Shown here piece after piece: positions 12,832 to 22,082 of a DNA stretch of 22,082 bases. The translations under genes were made by a program, and so were the position numbers. The notes under the pieces are model-generated. The model made no database searches and was not told the DNA's origin. It was given only the letters and a program-made list of their open reading frames with translations. Positions within the stretch are counted from its first letter, which is position 1; every line of letters begins with the position of its first letter. Source of the DNA: a virus; the IMG/VR virus record IMGVR_UViG_3300036790_000359, positions 1-22,082 of that record. One strand, written 5' to 3'.

Positions 12832-13434
12832 ATGACCAAGACCGCGCTGGCGGCTCCTGATCCGGGGGACCGGCCCCGTGACCCGTATGCCGGGGGTGTG
12901 AAGATCACGAAACTGCCGTCGCAGACGTCTGCGGTGGTGCAGTTGTGCCTGCGGGCCGCGCAGTTGCGGGCGGAGCACCGGACGTTCGCTCAGATCGCTG
13001 TCGAGCTGGAGTTGGGGTCCCCGGCGGATGCGCAGCGTGCGGTGCGTCAGGGCCTGGCGCTGACCCCGGCGGATGATGTGCGTGAGGTGCGGCGGCTGGA
13101 GGACATGCGGCTCGCGGAGATCGCGGTGGAGATGCGTGAGATCCTTCTGAACCCGCCGCCGCTCGCGCAATTGGGGAATGTGGTGAGGGGCGGCGATGGC
13201 CTGCCGGTGCCGGATGAGCAGGCCCGGTCGAAGGCGGCAGAGGTCCTGCTGAAGGTGTCTGCGGAAATGCGGAAACTTCACGGTGCCGATGCGCCGAAGA
13301 AGACGCTCGCGATCACGCACGAGATGGTCGCGGAGCGGATCGTCGAACTGAAACGGGAACTCGGCATCGGTGATGATGGCCTGCCGGGGTTCGCTCTGCC
13401 ACCCGGGCTGGACGGGGACGGGTCAGATGGATGA
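12832..13434 (+). CDS. Putative terminase small subunit
   Basis: A 200-residue protein. Residues ~38-70 look like a helix-turn-helix (LRAEHRTFAQIAVELEL ... ADAQRAVRQGLAL), followed by long charged helices (ERIVELKRELG) that could oligomerise. HTH followed by helices, ahead of the large terminase by about 1 kb, fits a small terminase that recognises packaging DNA. SD GGGGGTGG is 2-4 nt before ATG. No diagnostic motif confirms it; another DNA-binding role is possible. Confidence 0.55.
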   Translation: MTKTALAAPDPGDRPRDPYAGGVKITKLPSQTSAVVQLCLRAAQLRAEHRTFAQIAVELELGSPADAQRAVRQGLALTPADDVREVRRLEDMRLAEIAVEMREILLNPPPLAQLGNVVRGGDGLPVPDEQARSKAAEVLLKVSAEMRKLHGADAPKKTLAITHEMVAERIVELKRELGIGDDGLPGFALPPGLDGDGSDG

Positions 13435-13590
13435 CCCGAACGTGATGCCGGGGGCGGGCCTGGCGGTTACCACACGCCGGGAAGGCGCCTCGAGCGCGTG
13501 ACGGAGAGCGGCGAGAAGGTTTTCGTCATTGGCGAGGTCCCCCAGCGACATGTCCATCAAGGGGATTTTCGTTTCCACCACGTCGTCCAT
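13423..13590 (-). CDS. FxsA-like FXSXX-COOH RiPP precursor peptide
   Basis: A 55-residue peptide ending exactly in F51-G-S53-S-I55, matching the Phe-x-Ser-x-x-COOH signature. Before it lies a leader with the family's pattern of hydrophobic D/S-L-x-D-L segment, acidic spacer and amphipathic helix (MSLGDLANDENLLAALRHAL). In actinobacteria these precursors sit with a radical SAM/SPASM enzyme (FxsB) that makes three-residue cyclophanes. No such enzyme is visible in this window. It is on the opposite strand from the packaging genes and overlaps the 12832-13434 gene by 12 nt. No SD; TAGGAT lies 7 nt before ATG, so probably leaderless. Confidence 0.7.
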   Translation of the reverse strand: MDDVVETKIPLMDMSLGDLANDENLLAALRHALEAPSRRVVTARPAPGITFGSSI

Positions 13591-13597
13591 ACCCCTC

Positions 13598-13603
13598 ATC
13601 CTA
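13598..13603 (-). promoter_or_regulatory. -10 element of the FxsA-like gene
   Basis: TAGGAT on the - strand, 7 nt before the ATG at 13590. It is the same hexamer and spacing as at the RHH gene. An in-frame ATG at 13599 would overlap it. No clear -35. Confidence 0.4.
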
Positions 13604-13639
13604 CCTGCATTGATGCCCTGGACGTGGGAGGATGACTGT

Positions 13640-13705
13640 ATGCATCTACCCGGGAACCCACAGCAGTCAGGTGCAGGGGACGCGCCGCTGGGGGTTGCGC
13701 CGTGA
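13640..13705 (+). CDS. 21-residue leader-like peptide
   Basis: ATG 13640 has a strong SD (GGGAGG, 8-nt spacing). The 21-codon frame ends in TGA overlapping the GTG of the next gene. It is Gly/Pro-rich with no motif. It may be a translational coupler for the packaging operon rather than a functional protein. Confidence 0.4.
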   Translation: MHLPGNPQQSGAGDAPLGVAP

Positions 13706-13890
13706 CTTGTGACTTCCCCCGGGCGTGGGAGATCGCCAGCGCCACCCCGGTCGCGGGACACGACCTCTGCTGCTCCTACCGGGTGACCATCGGGGCCATG
13801 CTGTGCGACTGCCCGGTGCTGACCGGCCACCCCGAATACGCCGACGAGGTACTCCACGGCCGCGGTGGGGCGGTACGTACCGTTGGGTGA
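13702..13890 (+). CDS. Small Cys-rich protein
   Basis: A 62-residue protein, GTG start overlapping the upstream stop (GTGA). Cys appear at C3, a CC pair (~23-24) and CDC (~34-36), with a His (GHPEY), suggesting metal binding. It overlaps the next gene by 26 nt in another frame. No family recognised. Confidence 0.5.
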   Translation: MTCDFPRAWEIASATPVAGHDLCCSYRVTIGAMLCDCPVLTGHPEYADEVLHGRGGAVRTVG

Positions 13891-14401
13891 GCGCGACGGC
13901 GACACGATCTGGGTGATCTCCACCCGCGGCCCGGACGACAAGCCGGTCTGCGAGATCAACTGGGGCAAGAAGCGTTACTACGCACCCGTCGCAGACGTGC
14001 GGCAGACCGCCCTCGACCTGGTGACGTGTGCTGCGTACGCCGAGATGATGATGAAACTCGCCGGGCTCGGCCTCCCCGCCCGGCACGTCTCCGCGTTCAC
14101 ATCGGATCTTCTGTCAGACGCTGGCCGTACCATGTTCGGCACCCCCCGCACGATTACTCTCCTGCCCGCCGGGTCCACCAAACGCAAGCAGGCCCTCGTG
14201 CTCCTGAACCGCGGGTCATCGGAGGGTGCCCTGTCCCCGGACGAGGCGCGGGGCATGGCCCTGCAGTGGCTTGAGGCGGCCGAGGCCACCGAATCCGACC
14301 AGCTGGTTACGGAGGCGCTGCGCGCTACCCGGATCGCCAGCGCTACGGACATCGTCCAGCTGTTCGGCTACCTCCAGAAACTACGGGAACGGAAGCAATA
14401 A
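13865..14401 (+). CDS. Hypothetical protein upstream of terminase
   Basis: A 178-residue protein. An N-terminal beta part (YVPLGERDGDTIWVISTRG, KKRYYAPVADV) precedes a helical part (AAYAEMMMKLAGLGL; SPDEARGMALQWLEAAEA) and a C-terminal helix ending in KLRERKQ. It lies in the usual place of a terminase accessory or small subunit, so it is the alternative candidate for that role. GTG 13865 has only a weak SD. Confidence 0.6.
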   Translation: MGRYVPLGERDGDTIWVISTRGPDDKPVCEINWGKKRYYAPVADVRQTALDLVTCAAYAEMMMKLAGLGLPARHVSAFTSDLLSDAGRTMFGTPRTITLLPAGSTKRKQALVLLNRGSSEGALSPDEARGMALQWLEAAEATESDQLVTEALRATRIASATDIVQLFGYLQKLRERKQ

Positions 14402-14437: not shown

Positions 14438-16111
14438 TTGCCCCCACGCCCGCAGTACGACGACGCGCCGACACTCGCGCTCAAGGAACTCCTCGACCTG
14501 ATCGAGCTGCAGAAACTCGGGCAGCGGGCGAAGGCGCCAGAGCGGACGGCAGCGCAGTACATCGACGATCCGCTCGGGTTCGTGGACAACTGCGTGAAGT
14601 TCCCCGAGCCGCGGCGGCGCGGGAAGGCGACAAAATCGACCGGTCTGGCGACGTACCAGCGGGACATCATGGCCAGCGTCCCAGAGAAACACCGTGTCGC
14701 TGTCCGCGGTCCAAGAGGATTGGGCAAGTCGGCGGTCGCGTCCCTGACCTTGTTGTGGTTCGCGCTGACCCGGGACGCGGCCGGGGTGGACTGGAAGTGT
14801 GTCACCACCGCTGGGTCCTGGTCGCAGCTTCTGTCCTATTTGTGGCCCGAGATCAAGAAATGGTCTTATTGCCTGAATTGGGAGACGGTCGGCCGGGGCC
14901 CGTTCAGCGAGCGCAACGAACTGATGAAGGCCGGCCTGTCGCTGCGGCACGGGCTGGCGACCGCAGGCTCCCCGGATCAGCCGCAGAAACTTGAGGGCGC
15001 ACACGCGGACAGCGTGCTGTACATCTTCGACGAGTCGAAAATCATCGCCGCCGACACGTTCGACGCCGCTGAGGGCGCATTCTCCGGCGCGGGTGAGGAT
15101 ACGGGCCTTGAGGCGTTCGCCCTAGCCATCAGTACACCAGGTGAGCCGGCAGGCAGGTTCTACGACATCCACCGGCACGCCGAGGGGCTCGAAGACTGGC
15201 ACACGCGCCACGTCACATTGGCCGAAGCGGTCGCCGCCGGGCGGATGACATACGACTGGGCCAGCAAGCGGAAACGTCTCTGGGGGGAAACCAGCGCCCT
15301 TTACCAGAACCATGTCCTTGGCGAGTTCTGCTCCGAGGACGAGGACGCGATCATCCCGCTCGCGTGGGTGGAGGCGGCACAAGAACGGTGGCGGGACTGG
15401 GACCGCACTGGGCGCCCGGATCAGGATGGGCAGCACACCATCGGGGTGGACGTAGCACGCAGCGGCCAGGACAAGAGCGTCGCTGCGGTCCGGCAGGGGG
15501 ACGTCATCACTCACCTGGTGACGTGGGCGAAGGAAGACACCATGGAGACTGTCGGCCGGGTAAAGGGCCTGCTCGACGCAGACCCGCTGGCCACCGCGAT
15601 CGTTGACGTGATCGGCATCGGAGCCGGGGTGTACGACCGGCTCCGGGAGATGGGCACGAAGGTGGACCCGTTCAACGCGGCGAAGAAAACCACCAGAAAG
15701 GATGTTACTAGACAATTCGGTTTTATGAACCTCAGATCTGCGGCCTGGTGGAATTTGCGTGAGCTACTTGACCCTTCCCGGCCGGGTGGCTCCAAGGTGG
15801 CGCTGCCTCCCGACGATGAACTCGTAGGCGACCTCACCGCGCTGCACAAGAAGTACATGTCCGAGGGCAAGATCCTCGCCGAGGCCAAGGACGACGTAAA
15901 AAAGCGAATCGGCCGGTCAACGGACAAAGGTGACGCTGTAATTCAAAGTTACTTTACCGTCGTCGGCTCATTCCACGACATTTACGGCACACAGATGTGC
16001 CCCGACGAGAAGTGCGGTCGCGGGTTCGCGCAGAACGAGAACGGCAAACCCCGTACCCGCTGCCCTTACTGCAACGCACCACTCGAGACCGAGGAAGACG
16101 AGGCTGCCTGA
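14438..16111 (+). CDS. terL: Terminase large subunit
   Basis: A 557-residue phage DNA-packaging motor. Walker A RGPRGLGKS (90-98) and Walker B VLYIFDES (193-200, D198 and E199) form the ATPase. The nuclease half has GVDVA (D338), AIVDVIGIG (D390) and KGDAV (D499), the three acids of the RNase H-like fold. An unusual C-terminal zinc-ribbon (C521, C526, C542, C545) follows. TTG 14438 is the first start after an in-frame stop and has GGGGGTGA upstream. Its stop overlaps the next start (TGATG). Intein-free and intact. Confidence 0.93.
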   Translation: MPPRPQYDDAPTLALKELLDLIELQKLGQRAKAPERTAAQYIDDPLGFVDNCVKFPEPRRRGKATKSTGLATYQRDIMASVPEKHRVAVRGPRGLGKSAVASLTLLWFALTRDAAGVDWKCVTTAGSWSQLLSYLWPEIKKWSYCLNWETVGRGPFSERNELMKAGLSLRHGLATAGSPDQPQKLEGAHADSVLYIFDESKIIAADTFDAAEGAFSGAGEDTGLEAFALAISTPGEPAGRFYDIHRHAEGLEDWHTRHVTLAEAVAAGRMTYDWASKRKRLWGETSALYQNHVLGEFCSEDEDAIIPLAWVEAAQERWRDWDRTGRPDQDGQHTIGVDVARSGQDKSVAAVRQGDVITHLVTWAKEDTMETVGRVKGLLDADPLATAIVDVIGIGAGVYDRLREMGTKVDPFNAAKKTTRKDVTRQFGFMNLRSAAWWNLRELLDPSRPGGSKVALPPDDELVGDLTALHKKYMSEGKILAEAKDDVKKRIGRSTDKGDAVIQSYFTVVGSFHDIYGTQMCPDEKCGRGFAQNENGKPRTRCPYCNAPLETEEDEAA

Positions 16112-17116: not shown

Positions 17117-17536
17117 TTGCCCGTCGCTGCCGTGGACGTGAAGGACCGGGAGATCACCCGGCTCAAGCGGCGCCTCCGCGAGGTCCAGGCGCTCCTGCGG
17201 GACGCTAAAGTGATGCTCGCAGCCCCCCCGGCTGCTGCCGCGGCCGATTCAGACGTAGAGCCGCCATTGAGTGCTGCGGAGATCCGCCACCTCCACGACC
17301 AGTTCGCCCCGCCCACCGGGAGCGCCTGCACCATCTGCGGGGCGGTCCACCCCGGACCCTGCCAAACTTGCGGTGGTTTGCATGCCCGGGCGTGCCCGCG
17401 GATCCGCAGCGTCGAGTACCAGCCGCAGGGAGATAACATCCTCATCCGCAAGGTCGAGTACTGGCCGGACGGCCGCTGGTCCACCGACGGCATCTACTTC
17501 CCCGAGTCATTGCCGCCGCTGCCGGACGAGGGCTAG
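17117..17536 (+). CDS. Coiled-coil plus zinc-ribbon protein
   Basis: A 139-residue protein. TTG 17117 is chosen because AAGGAGG lies 6 nt upstream; a longer frame runs through the RNA structure. The N-terminal basic coiled coil (KDREITRLKRRLREVQALL) is followed by an Ala-rich linker and a Cys cluster CTICGAVHPGPCQTCGG ... ARAC, then strands (VEYQPQGDNILIRKVEYW). Function unknown. Confidence 0.65.
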   Translation: MPVAAVDVKDREITRLKRRLREVQALLRDAKVMLAAPPAAAAADSDVEPPLSAAEIRHLHDQFAPPTGSACTICGAVHPGPCQTCGGLHARACPRIRSVEYQPQGDNILIRKVEYWPDGRWSTDGIYFPESLPPLPDEG

Positions 17537-17802
17537 GGCGCTGCACCTTCCTGGTGCACCTCAACGCCGCCCGCATCGGGGTTCCCCTCAAACGCCACCA
17601 TGACCCGCGGCTCCCTCCGTCCTGCGCCGGCCATGCCCGGCATCAGTGACGCCTCATTCGAGCCCGCGTCGACAGCGAGCACGAAATCCAGGGGCCGGTG
17701 CACCGTCAGCTGGTAGACCGCGTCGTTGTCGTAGACGATCCCGACGAACAGGGTCGCCACGCGCCCCTCGCGGGACTCCCCGGCCTGCCGTTCCAGCTCC
17801 AT
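17533..17802 (-). CDS. Leftward hypothetical protein in late region
   Basis: An 89-residue acidic protein. Third codon positions are almost all G or C, supporting coding. Strands VATLFVGIVYDNDAVYQLTVHR and RVMVAFEG suggest a beta fold. No SD; a -10-like TAGCCT lies 6 nt before ATG 17802, so it may be leaderless like the other leftward accessory genes. Its stop overlaps the end of the preceding rightward gene. Confidence 0.55.
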   Translation of the reverse strand: MELERQAGESREGRVATLFVGIVYDNDAVYQLTVHRPLDFVLAVDAGSNEASLMPGMAGAGRREPRVMVAFEGNPDAGGVEVHQEGAAP

Positions 17803-18771: not shown

Positions 18772-19900
18772 ATGAAGGCTAGCAAGCCCACCGCAGGCTT
18801 CAGTGCGGACACCGAGATCCTCACCCGTTCGGACGGGTGGCTCACGTTCGATCAACTCCGCTACTTGGATCAAGTAGCCACTAGGGATTCGGACGGGAAG
18901 TTCTGCTGGCAGAGTGTCCAGCGCGTTACGTGGGAGCCCTACTGCGGGGACATGGTGTGGTTCCATAGCCGCACCACCGATTGCGCTGGTGACTCCCGCG
19001 CATCCCATGCTCTACCTGGAACGCAAGCGCGACTGCCGGGGCGGCAAGCGCATCGAACTGCCCAAGGTTGAGTACGTCAGCCGCGCCGACACCTTCATTG
19101 GGGCACCGAAGTCTCTCGTCGCCACGAGCCGCTGGGAATCCACGGATACGAGGCGCGAGATCGCCCTGAGGTCAAAGCCGGTGCGCAGTGACGGGAAACG
19201 CAACGTCGGCAACGCCCCGCTCGACTTCGTGGCCAGCACCAGTGATTTCGCAGCCTTCATGGGCATGTACCTGTCGGAAGGAAGCCTCGGCGTCGGGTCG
19301 AGTCCCGGTAACTATCCGATCAGCATCTGGCAGACCCAGCAAGGCAAAGGGATCGACATCTACCGGGAGCGGCTGGAGGCCATGCTCGGCCGCAAGGTGG
19401 CGTGGTACCACACCAAGGGTGTCTTCAGGTTCTTCAACAAGGCATTGTACGAGTACCTGAAGACGCTCGGCGGCTACGCGTGGACGAAGCGCATCCCGGC
19501 TGAGGTGCTGGAACTCGGCACCGAGGATCTGGAAACCTTCTGGCATTACTACTGGCTAGGCGACGGCTCCATGATGAGTTCCGAGGGCCGACGGGACATT
19601 GAAGTCCAGCAGACCACCAGTAAGGCCATAGCGGATAGCTTCCAGGAGATCCTGCAGAAGCTCGGTGGCTGGAGCAAGGTACACACGGTCAGCAGGGCAG
19701 AACGTCACGGAAGTGTCTGTGGCGTGCCCGTGAAGGCTCGGCACACTCTCTATCGCGTCGTGCGCCGCGCTGGGACTGTGGCGTTCCCCACCCACGTTGA
19801 GCGCGTTCCGTATCGGGGCCTGATCGGCTGCGCGAGCGTCCCCGCCGGTTCGGTGTACGTCCGCAGGAACGATCATCCCGTGTGGGCAGGTAGCGCCTAG
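18772..19900 (+). pseudogene. Intein-derived LAGLIDADG homing endonuclease, frameshifted
   Basis: About 375 residues over two frames. The N-terminal Hint block GFSADTEIL (Gly where inteins need Cys/Ser/Ala) sits in the first frame. After an extra T near 18,981, the next frame gives the TPAHPM block and LAGLIDADG motifs FMGMYLSEGSLG and WLGDGSM. It ends YVRRNDHPVWAGSA-stop, the intein C-terminal form but with Ser where the terminal Asn belongs. So it is a free-standing, splicing-dead relative of an intein endonuclease, probably non-functional unless the shift is an error. It lies 47 bp before the portal gene. Confidence 0.75.
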
Positions 19901-19947: not shown

Positions 19948-22082
19948 GTGGCGGCAGACGCTCGGCAGATCCTGAGGGCACTCAAGGCCACCGCTCCGCC
20001 TCCGAGCATGGGCGGGTACGGGAATCATCCAGCTCCGTATATCGGGCCGGGCCCAAGCCCGCTGGTTCAGTCATACAACGAGAGCTTCGGCGCGCACCAG
20101 TACGGGACGAACGGTGCCCTGCCGCGGGACTGGCGTACGTTCCTGAGCGGCATGTTCGGCCCACTGGCCCCGATCCAGCCGGTACCGATCGACGTACCTG
20201 CGCCTGGTGCTGAGCGGCCGGAGCCGAGGCGCTTCCAGTATCCGGTGAGCTACAATATGCCCGGATATATGCCAGGTCAGCCTGGTTTGGGTCGTCTGGC
20301 CGACTTTGAGACGCTTCGTAAACTTGCGGATTTGTACTCCATTGCCCGGTCCGCGATCGAGCTGCGGAAGTCTGAACTCCGCGGGATCGGCTGGGACGTA
20401 GCACCGACGGCCCAGGCCGCCAAGGCGATGCGTGGTGACCACAAGGCGGCCCGCGACTTCCAGGAGCGCCGCGCCAAGGTCGTCAAGTTCTTCCGCCGGC
20501 CTGACCCGAATTACGCGGACTTCACCTCGTGGTTCAACGCCATCCTGGAAGAGTTTTTCGTCACCGACGCACTCTCGTTGTACTTTCACCCTTCCCGGGT
20601 AAATGGCAAGGGCCTTCTCGGGTCCAATCTAGCGGCCCTTGATCTAATCGACGGCGCGCAAGTGAAGCCATTGTTGAACGTCCGCGGAGGAATGCCAGCT
20701 CCCCCCAACCCGGCCTTTCAAATTTTCGACTACAGCGTCCCGCGCGTCGAACTTATGACCCTTCTCGCTGACGCGGATGAGGATGGGCTCCTAGGCCAGT
20801 ACGGAAACGACCAGCTGTTCTACCTGCCGTTCACGCGGCGCGTATGGACGCCATTCGGTCACAGTTTTCTAGAGCGGGCACTTGTGCCCATCATGGCTGG
20901 AATCAACAAACAGCAGTATCAATTGGACTTTTTCGCTGAAGGTACGGTTCCGGCCGTATATGTGAGCCCTGGGGACACAGCGATGACCCCGTCCCAGCTG
21001 CGGGAACTCCAGGACGCCCTGAACGCGATTGCCGGGGATATCGCATGGAAGCACAAGATCATCGTGCTGCCCGGCGGCAGTAAGATCGACCCGCAGAAGG
21101 GTACGACACTCGCCGACGAGTTCGACACGCTCGTGCAAATCCAGACGGCAATGGGCTTTGATATACAGCCATTCGAGCTTGGAATTTTGCCCCAGTTGTC
21201 CGCCGCTGCTTCTGCATCGTCTGGTGCGGCCCGGCAGGCCGTTACCGCCCACGTTGAGCTTCGCCAGCGCAAGTCCACCATCCCGATTCTCCTGTTCCTG
21301 AAGCTTGCCATTTTCGACAAGGTCATTCAGGACATCTGCGGAATGTCGGACATGGAGCTTTCCTGGGAGGGATTGCAAGAAGAAGGAACTGAAGACGAGG
21401 TCGGCCAGATCGTTGCGGAGATTGGTGCGGGCCTGCTCTCAATTGACGAGGGACGCCAAATGCTGGGGCTGGAACCGTGGGGTCTTCCGATCACTTCGGA
21501 CCCTGGGTGGAGCACTTCGTGGGCGGGCTTCGTGCCGCTAACCGGCGTTTCGGGCGCTACGTCCATGCCTCAGGGCGGCGCACCAGCGCCAGGTAGTTCG
21601 CCCGGTGCGGCGGTCCCGCAAGCTGCGGACTTCACCGGTCCGTCGACTGCATCCAGGCCCGGCGGCCCGTCCGTTCCAGCGAAGCCCCGCAACCAGATGT
21701 CCCGCTCTCAGCGCCAAGGCCAGGCGCGCGGCGTGACGGCTACCCAGAATCGCACCGGAGCTGTCGGTACACCCGCCCACTCTGGCGCCCGGGCGGTCTC
21801 GGGGCCAGTGGCACCCTTGCGGACTGCGGCCCAGCGGACGGGCCAGCCGACCTCCGCGTCCCAGACGCCGCCCCGGGCCACCAAAGTCATTCAGGGCATG
21901 CTGCTCGCGGAGGACGAGGACGAGCTGAACGCCCTGGCCGCTGGTGCCGCGGACCTGACGCAGCCGACGGGGTATAAGGGGCTGGATGCCGCGAAGGCGG
22001 CCCGTGAACTGGGGCTGCTGCGCTCTCACCTGCGCCGGGGGGGGCAGATAACGGCGTGGCAGCCCCGCCATGTCCCTGTCCG
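19948..22082 (+). CDS. Phage portal protein, truncated by window end
   Basis: The frame is open from GTG 19948 (SD AGGAAG/GGGGGG upstream; ATG 20008 is an alternative) to the window end, 711 residues. A Pro/Gly-rich N-terminus is followed by the core of HK97-like portals: LYSIARSAIELRKSELRGIGW, FRRPDPNYADFTSWFNAILEEF, VWTPFGHSFLERALVPI, FAEGTVPAVYVSP, GFDIQPFELGILPQ. A long Pro/Ser/Ala linker and a helical acidic C-terminal region follow. The portal forms the dodecameric DNA-entry ring at the head vertex and binds the terminase. The extended C-terminus is unusual and could be a fused minor-head domain. Confidence 0.85.
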   Translation, partial: MAADARQILRALKATAPPPSMGGYGNHPAPYIGPGPSPLVQSYNESFGAHQYGTNGALPRDWRTFLSGMFGPLAPIQPVPIDVPAPGAERPEPRRFQYPVSYNMPGYMPGQPGLGRLADFETLRKLADLYSIARSAIELRKSELRGIGWDVAPTAQAAKAMRGDHKAARDFQERRAKVVKFFRRPDPNYADFTSWFNAILEEFFVTDALSLYFHPSRVNGKGLLGSNLAALDLIDGAQVKPLLNVRGGMPAPPNPAFQIFDYSVPRVELMTLLADADEDGLLGQYGNDQLFYLPFTRRVWTPFGHSFLERALVPIMAGINKQQYQLDFFAEGTVPAVYVSPGDTAMTPSQLRELQDALNAIAGDIAWKHKIIVLPGGSKIDPQKGTTLADEFDTLVQIQTAMGFDIQPFELGILPQLSAAASASSGAARQAVTAHVELRQRKSTIPILLFLKLAIFDKVIQDICGMSDMELSWEGLQEEGTEDEVGQIVAEIGAGLLSIDEGRQMLGLEPWGLPITSDPGWSTSWAGFVPLTGVSGATSMPQGGAPAPGSSPGAAVPQAADFTGPSTASRPGGPSVPAKPRNQMSRSQRQGQARGVTATQNRTGAVGTPAHSGARAVSGPVAPLRTAAQRTGQPTSASQTPPRATKVIQGMLLAEDEDELNALAAGAADLTQPTGYKGLDAAKAARELGLLRSHLRRGGQITAWQPRHVPV

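What the first reader, a model, noticed from the sequence alone, without database searches (positions are those of the whole stretch)
13423..13590. Phage-encoded FxsA-like (FXSXX-COOH) precursor peptide without its maturase
The 55-residue ORF ends exactly in F-G-S-S-I and has the family's leader-like helix. FXSXX-COOH peptides are normally chromosomal substrates of a radical SAM/SPASM cyclophane synthase (FxsB), with FxsC and an NB-ARC/TPR partner nearby. Here it stands alone, antisense and probably leaderless inside a phage packaging region. I infer it could be matured by a host FxsB, or act as a decoy of, or cargo for, a host Fxs system. The latter is attractive because STAND-type NTPases often serve in defence.
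Basis: partly seen in the sequence, partly recalled or inferred. Interest (0 to 1): 0.85.

Follow-up and report, generated by a model that had tools for sequence, protein, structure and literature searches.

The report
Orphan FxsA-like peptide gene in actinophage
A phage that probably infects actinobacteria carries a tiny self-standing gene resembling the precursor of a bacterial modified peptide, without the enzymes that finish that peptide, and about a dozen other viral sequences do the same, which suggests that phages feed such peptides into a bacterial pathway that may belong to immunity.

Summary
The ORF is real: 55 aa, minus strand, ending exactly F-G-S-S-I, antisense in the gap upstream of TerL. 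Its codon composition matches the phage's own genes, and a -10-like TAGGAT lies 7 nt before its ATG. It misses NCBI's FxSxx-COOH model and scores 5.8 bits on my HMM (known members 25 or more). But its leader alone resembles FxsA leaders (z 4.0; 0 of 221 control phage proteins reach this), and in 1.27 Mb of viral DNA only clear FxsA genes share its strict tail. I rate it a divergent FxsA-like precursor (about 0.8).

The larger finding: eleven other IMG/VR records carry clear FxsA precursors, two of them among the window's 29 terminase relatives. None of the eleven, nor the window, has FxsB or FxsC, whereas FxsB adjoins FxsA in 38 of 39 cellular loci of that class. The exception, in Streptosporangium carneum, lies beside an integrase remnant at tRNA-Sec and is 60% identical to the FxsA at that host's separate FxsB locus. 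Most likely these are mobile genes whose peptide is matured by host FxsB and enters, or jams, the host Fxs pathway. Maturation in trans and any decoy role are untested inference.

The parts
13423..13590 (-). FxsA-like precursor ORF, 55 aa, ends F-G-S-S-I
   Evidence: Translation; coding composition like TerL; leader similarity z 4.0; strict tail; below family HMMs
13489..13569 (-). Leader region, residues 8-34 (KIPLMDMSLGDLANDENLLAALRHALE), resembles FxsA leaders
   Evidence: Leader-only alignment test against shuffles and native small phage proteins; alignment
13426..13455 (-). C-terminal ten residues APGITFGSSI, in register with VPVAAFNSSI; F51-G52-S53 (13432-13440) is the putative cyclophane motif
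   Evidence: Alignment; cyclophane is inferred from the family description
13598..13603 (-). TAGGAT, -10-like element 7 nt before the ATG, suggests a leaderless transcript
   Evidence: Sequence; background about 1%; no -35 match
12832..13434 (+). Neighbour in small-terminase position (PHROG 645)
   Evidence: PHROG hit E 3e-13, named there 'Rnase E'; small-terminase role inferred from position
13865..14401 (+). Neighbouring late gene of unknown function, 178 aa
   Evidence: Coding composition; no family at useful E-value
14438..16111 (+). Terminase large subunit
   Evidence: PHROG 2, E 1.4e-37; phage relatives at about 51% identity
19948..22080 (+). Portal protein, may be cut off by the end of the record
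   Evidence: PHROG 2662, E 5.7e-34

Best explanation
The ORF is an expressed, self-standing 'moron' gene for an FxsA-type (FxSxx-COOH) RiPP precursor, one of a recurrent set of maturase-less FxsA genes carried by phages and integrated elements of actinobacteria. During infection or lysogeny the peptide is recognised through its leader by a host FxsB (radical SAM/SPASM enzyme), the F-x-S of its tail is cross-linked as in the host's own FxsA, and the product enters the host Fxs pathway. The likeliest benefit to the phage is to perturb that pathway by competing with, or substituting for, the host FxsA. Shown here: the ORF and its tail, coding signature, leader resemblance, recurrence in phages, absence of FxsB/FxsC from the viral records, and one integrated copy resembling the FxsA of a host that has FxsB elsewhere. 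Inferred: leaderless expression, maturation in trans, perturbation of the host system.
For: Coding signature. Leader-only similarity to FxsA. Strict tail without other false match in 1.27 Mb. Two of 29 TerL relatives carry clear FxsA genes, against 11 records found by two tail patterns in 2.9 million viral contigs. Phage genes confirmed in G023-G027. FxsB and FxsC in 0 of 12 viral records but 10 of 10 cellular FxsA genomes; FxsB adjacent in 38 of 39 cellular loci. Leaderless -10 in the window and 4-5 of 13 other viral FxsA genes, 0 of 39 cellular. Antisense lone position also in G004 and G027. S. carneum: orphan FxsA beside an integrase remnant and tRNA-Sec, FxsB with its own FxsA elsewhere, 60% identity between the two.
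Against: The window ORF misses TIGR04268 and scores 5.8 bits on my HMM, where left-out members score 25.5 or more and 5% of scrambled-leader controls do as well. No homologue of it was found anywhere. Host unknown. The window is a fragment. Nothing biochemical supports maturation or any effect on the host.
Confidence: 0.5

Rival explanations
1. The window ORF is a small phage gene unrelated to FxsA (for example a helical regulatory peptide) whose last five residues match F-x-S-x-x by chance; the clear phage FxsA genes elsewhere are a separate matter.
For: No hit to TIGR04268; 5.8 bits against 25.5 or more for members; tail ITFGSSI differs from the VPVAAF class of all other viral copies; no equivalent ORF near TerL in relatives.
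Against: Leader without the tail resembles FxsA leaders better than any of 221 control proteins; strict tail rare; a -10 at the same distance as in other viral FxsA genes; two FxsA carriers among TerL relatives.
Confidence: 0.2
2. Decoy or competitive inhibitor: the phage peptide occupies host FxsB or the host receptor of mature FxsA and so blunts an Fxs-linked immune response. Same anatomy as the best explanation, but the peptide need not be matured.
For: Substrate without maturase in all viral records; the integrated copy in S. carneum resembles the host's own FxsA; FxSxx peptides coupled to AP-ATPase/TIR conflict systems by a computational study (PMC7159879).
Against: The F-x-S motif needed for cross-linking is kept in every copy, which a pure decoy would not need, though the scans selected for it. 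No infection data. No copy was shown near other counter-defence genes.
Confidence: 0.25
3. The viral FxsA genes are accidental passengers picked up from hosts by temperate phages and not under selection in the phage.
For: FxsA lies beside an integrase in G027 and in S. carneum, where host genes are readily acquired; carriage is rare, 11 records by the two patterns in 2.9 million contigs.
Against: Leader and tail are kept while the rest diverges; three tandem copies in G023; leaderless -10 elements recur in viral copies and are absent from 39 cellular ones; coding composition is kept.
Confidence: 0.15

Closest known systems
FxSxx-COOH cyclophane-containing RiPP precursor FxsA (NCBIfam TIGR04268)
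   Same: Length, acidic start, leader with leucine-rich helix, conserved proline and exact C-terminal F-x-S-S-I
   Different: Below the family model; two-residue shorter loop and longer linker; no FxsB/FxsC in the record; lone gene with leaderless -10
Cellular Fxs loci of the VPVAAF class with FxsB fused to an HExxH beta-hydroxylase-type domain (TIGR04269 plus TIGR04267)
   Same: Eleven viral records carry precursors with the same VPVAAFxS tail as these loci
   Different: In cells FxsB lies next to FxsA in 38 of 39 loci; in viral records it is missing
FxSxx peptide-processing systems of VMAP-ternary conflict systems (Kaur et al. 2020, PMC7159879)
   Same: Uses the same kind of precursor
   Different: Those are multi-gene chromosomal systems with radical SAM-SPASM enzyme, peptidase and AP-ATPase; here only the precursor, on a phage
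Phage morons (small cargo genes with their own promoter)
   Same: Small autonomous gene, against the direction of its neighbours, near the integrase in some records
   Different: The cargo is a RiPP precursor without its maturase

Membership tests
FxSxx-COOH / FxsA (TIGR04268) | Match to the curated model at or above 28 bits | tested here: not met
   No match by hmmscan or genome search; two TerL relatives give 19.4 and 25.9 bits, also under the cut-off
FxSxx-COOH / FxsA (TIGR04268) | Sequence ends in F-x-S-x-x | tested here: met
   Ends F-G-S-S-I then stop; strict form rare by chance
FxSxx-COOH / FxsA (TIGR04268) | FxsA-type leader | tested here: inconclusive
   Leader-only similarity z 4.0, 0 of 221 controls; but full HMM 5.8 bits, 5% of scrambles as high
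FxSxx-COOH / FxsA (TIGR04268) | FxsB maturase (TIGR04269) nearby | tested here: not met
   None in the window or in 11 viral FxsA records; the window is a fragment
FxSxx-COOH / FxsA (TIGR04268) | Phe-Ser cyclophane in the mature peptide | not testable with these tools
   Needs co-expression with FxsB and mass spectrometry
VMAP/AP-ATPase conflict system | AP-ATPase or TIR effector and peptidase encoded with the peptide | not tested
   FxsC absent from the viral records; AP-ATPase and TIR genes were not searched for in them
Phage moron | Autonomous gene inserted between phage genes, with its own promoter | tested here: inconclusive
   Lone antisense gene with a -10-like element; no -35; no relative that lacks the insert at the same site was aligned base by base

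The most novel reading that the evidence does not exclude
Actinobacterial phages carry a class of orphan RiPP precursors that mimic the host FxsA, are cross-linked by the host's own maturase, and thereby silence or redirect an Fxs-linked immune system: counter-defence through a substrate mimic of a peptide-modifying enzyme.
Probability: 0.2. Interest if true: 0.9.

Novelty: new variant of a known kind. Interest (0 to 1): 0.6.

Why it matters
I found no paper in the open-access library that reports phage-borne FxSxx precursors (most subscription journals are not held, so this is not proof). What Fxs systems do is an open question. A phage gene that supplies only the substrate gives a direct handle: if it changes infection of Fxs+ hosts, Fxs is linked to immunity, and the phage peptide is its natural probe.

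Tried and rejected
tblastn of the window peptide in phage and plasmid records and back-translated scans of viral and genome contigs found no homologue. The pattern ITFGSSI-stop gave 6 viral loci, none real: each frame reads on through Trp. LAGFxSSI-stop gave none in viral contigs. Two other viral peptides gave no significant named phage. The gap before TerL is not a shared FxsA site in relatives. L037 matched the VPVAAF pattern only in a 17-residue frame and was rejected. Loose F-x-S-x-x endings were rejected as evidence because they occur at chance rate. The HMM result pointed against the finding; I kept it as evidence against and then added leader-only and native-protein controls. These were run after seeing the HMM result, so they are not blind. 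Structure prediction was not run: a lone 55-residue leader peptide without relatives would not be informative.

Full report
What is there. The window is a 22,082-base virus record. Its left part carries many small genes on the minus strand and its right part late genes on the plus strand: a gene in small-terminase position (12832-13434), TerL (14438-16111, PHROG 2), a LAGLIDADG protein (18914-19900) and a portal protein (19948-22080). The best TerL matches among named phages are Streptomyces phage TurkishDelight and Actinoplanes phage phiAsp2, about 51% identity, so an actinobacterial host is likely. The ORF of the finding lies antisense in the gap at 13423-13590 and reads as described.

Is it a gene? 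Its GC content by codon position (0.65/0.45/0.80) is that of TerL (0.64/0.47/0.80), and its codon score is the best of the six frames at that place. No plus-strand gene was called from 13435 to 13701. A TAGGAT lies 7 nt before the ATG; TANNNT at 5-8 nt before a start is found at 1.0% of background ORF starts. No -35 was matched. The reading frame is open further upstream, so the start is inferred, not shown.

Is it FxsA-like? The curated model does not hit it. I collected cellular FxsA genes by a tail pattern and by TIGR04268 in 297 genomes of the class (33 positive; sequences) and built an HMM. With viral members added, the window scores 5.8 bits against 25.5-73 for left-out members, and 5% of scrambled leaders with the same tail do as well. 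That argues against membership. The left-out members were chosen by model or pattern, so they are the easy cases. For kinship: the leader alone, without the tail, aligns to FxsA leaders with z 4.0 over its own shuffles, as well as or better than some clear members, and none of 221 small phage proteins reaches that (maximum 3.0, mean 0.3). The strict tail F-x-S-[SA]-[ILVF] had no other false match in 1.27 Mb. The last ten residues APGITFGSSI are in register with VPVAAFNSSI, proline included. I put FxsA kinship at about 0.8.

Phages do carry FxsA. Two of the 29 TerL relatives hold clear FxsA genes: G001, 7.7 kb from TerL, and G004. Scans of 2.9 million viral contigs for VPVAAFxSx[ILV]-stop with either serine codon type found these and nine further records. 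One of them (G023, 120 kb) has three tandem copies between tRNA genes. Phage genes were confirmed in G023-G027 and recombination and replication genes in G335; evidence for G334, G336 and G337 is weaker.

No maturase. FxsB (TIGR04269) and FxsC (TIGR04276) are absent from the window and all 11 viral records and present in 10 of 10 cellular FxsA genomes. FxsB lies beside FxsA in 38 of 39 cellular loci of this tail class, fused to an HExxH beta-hydroxylase-type domain in the two I scanned. Viral genes differ also in layout: a leaderless -10 at 6-7 nt in G024, G027, G334 and G335, and in G001 overlapping the stop codon of the gene before, against 0 of 39 cellular genes. In G004 and G027 the gene is, like the window's, antisense to its neighbours.

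A host with both. The one cellular FxsA without FxsB nearby, in Streptosporangium carneum (L052:4598-4750), lies beside a phage integrase remnant and a tRNA-Sec gene. That genome has FxsB on another contig with its own FxsA, 60% identical over 43 residues to the element's copy. This is the arrangement that maturation in trans requires, in one genome.

Mechanism. The common denominator is a mobile gene that supplies substrate only. Since leader and cross-link motif are both kept, I think the peptide is matured by host FxsB and acts within the host Fxs pathway. PMC7159879 (section 24) couples FxSxx peptides and their radical SAM enzymes to AP-ATPase/TIR conflict systems in actinobacteria, on computational grounds, so a role in host-phage conflict is reasonable but unproven. 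Whether the phage gains by competing, by substituting or otherwise is open.

Limits. The window is a fragment; its host is unknown; its ORF has no homologue; viral copies were found through one tail class, so their tail conservation is partly the result of the search. Nothing biochemical was shown.

Noticed in passing
L159:14701-15269 (record G023, 120 kb): Three tandem FxsA-like genes with different leaders and the same VPVAAF tail, followed by seven tRNA genes and preceded by three.
   Followed up: partly
L052:3410-4750 (Streptosporangium carneum): Orphan FxsA beside a phage-integrase remnant at a tRNA-Sec gene, in a genome with FxsB and another FxsA elsewhere.
   Followed up: partly
window 18914-19900 (+): 328-aa protein with a LAGLIDADG domain just before the portal gene; weakly similar to the part of a replicative DNA helicase model at positions 588-697, possibly its intein.
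   Followed up: no
window 17533-17802 (-): A second small coding-like ORF (89 aa) antisense among the late genes, no family match.
   Followed up: no
L019:10001-12358 and L020:4890-7247: TerL relatives spread over 2,358 bases for query residues 40-506, so an insert of about 1 kb, perhaps an intein or intron, splits the terminase gene.
   Followed up: no
G021:C1:96525-98090 (-): TerL relative with one in-frame TAG inside the matched stretch; recoding, an error or a split gene.
   Followed up: no
L053:395-1624; also L048, L060, L064, L067, L068, L070: Several Kitasatospora/Streptomyces Fxs loci hold a second FxsB-like gene, about 47-49% identical to the first and roughly 3 kb from it.
   Followed up: no
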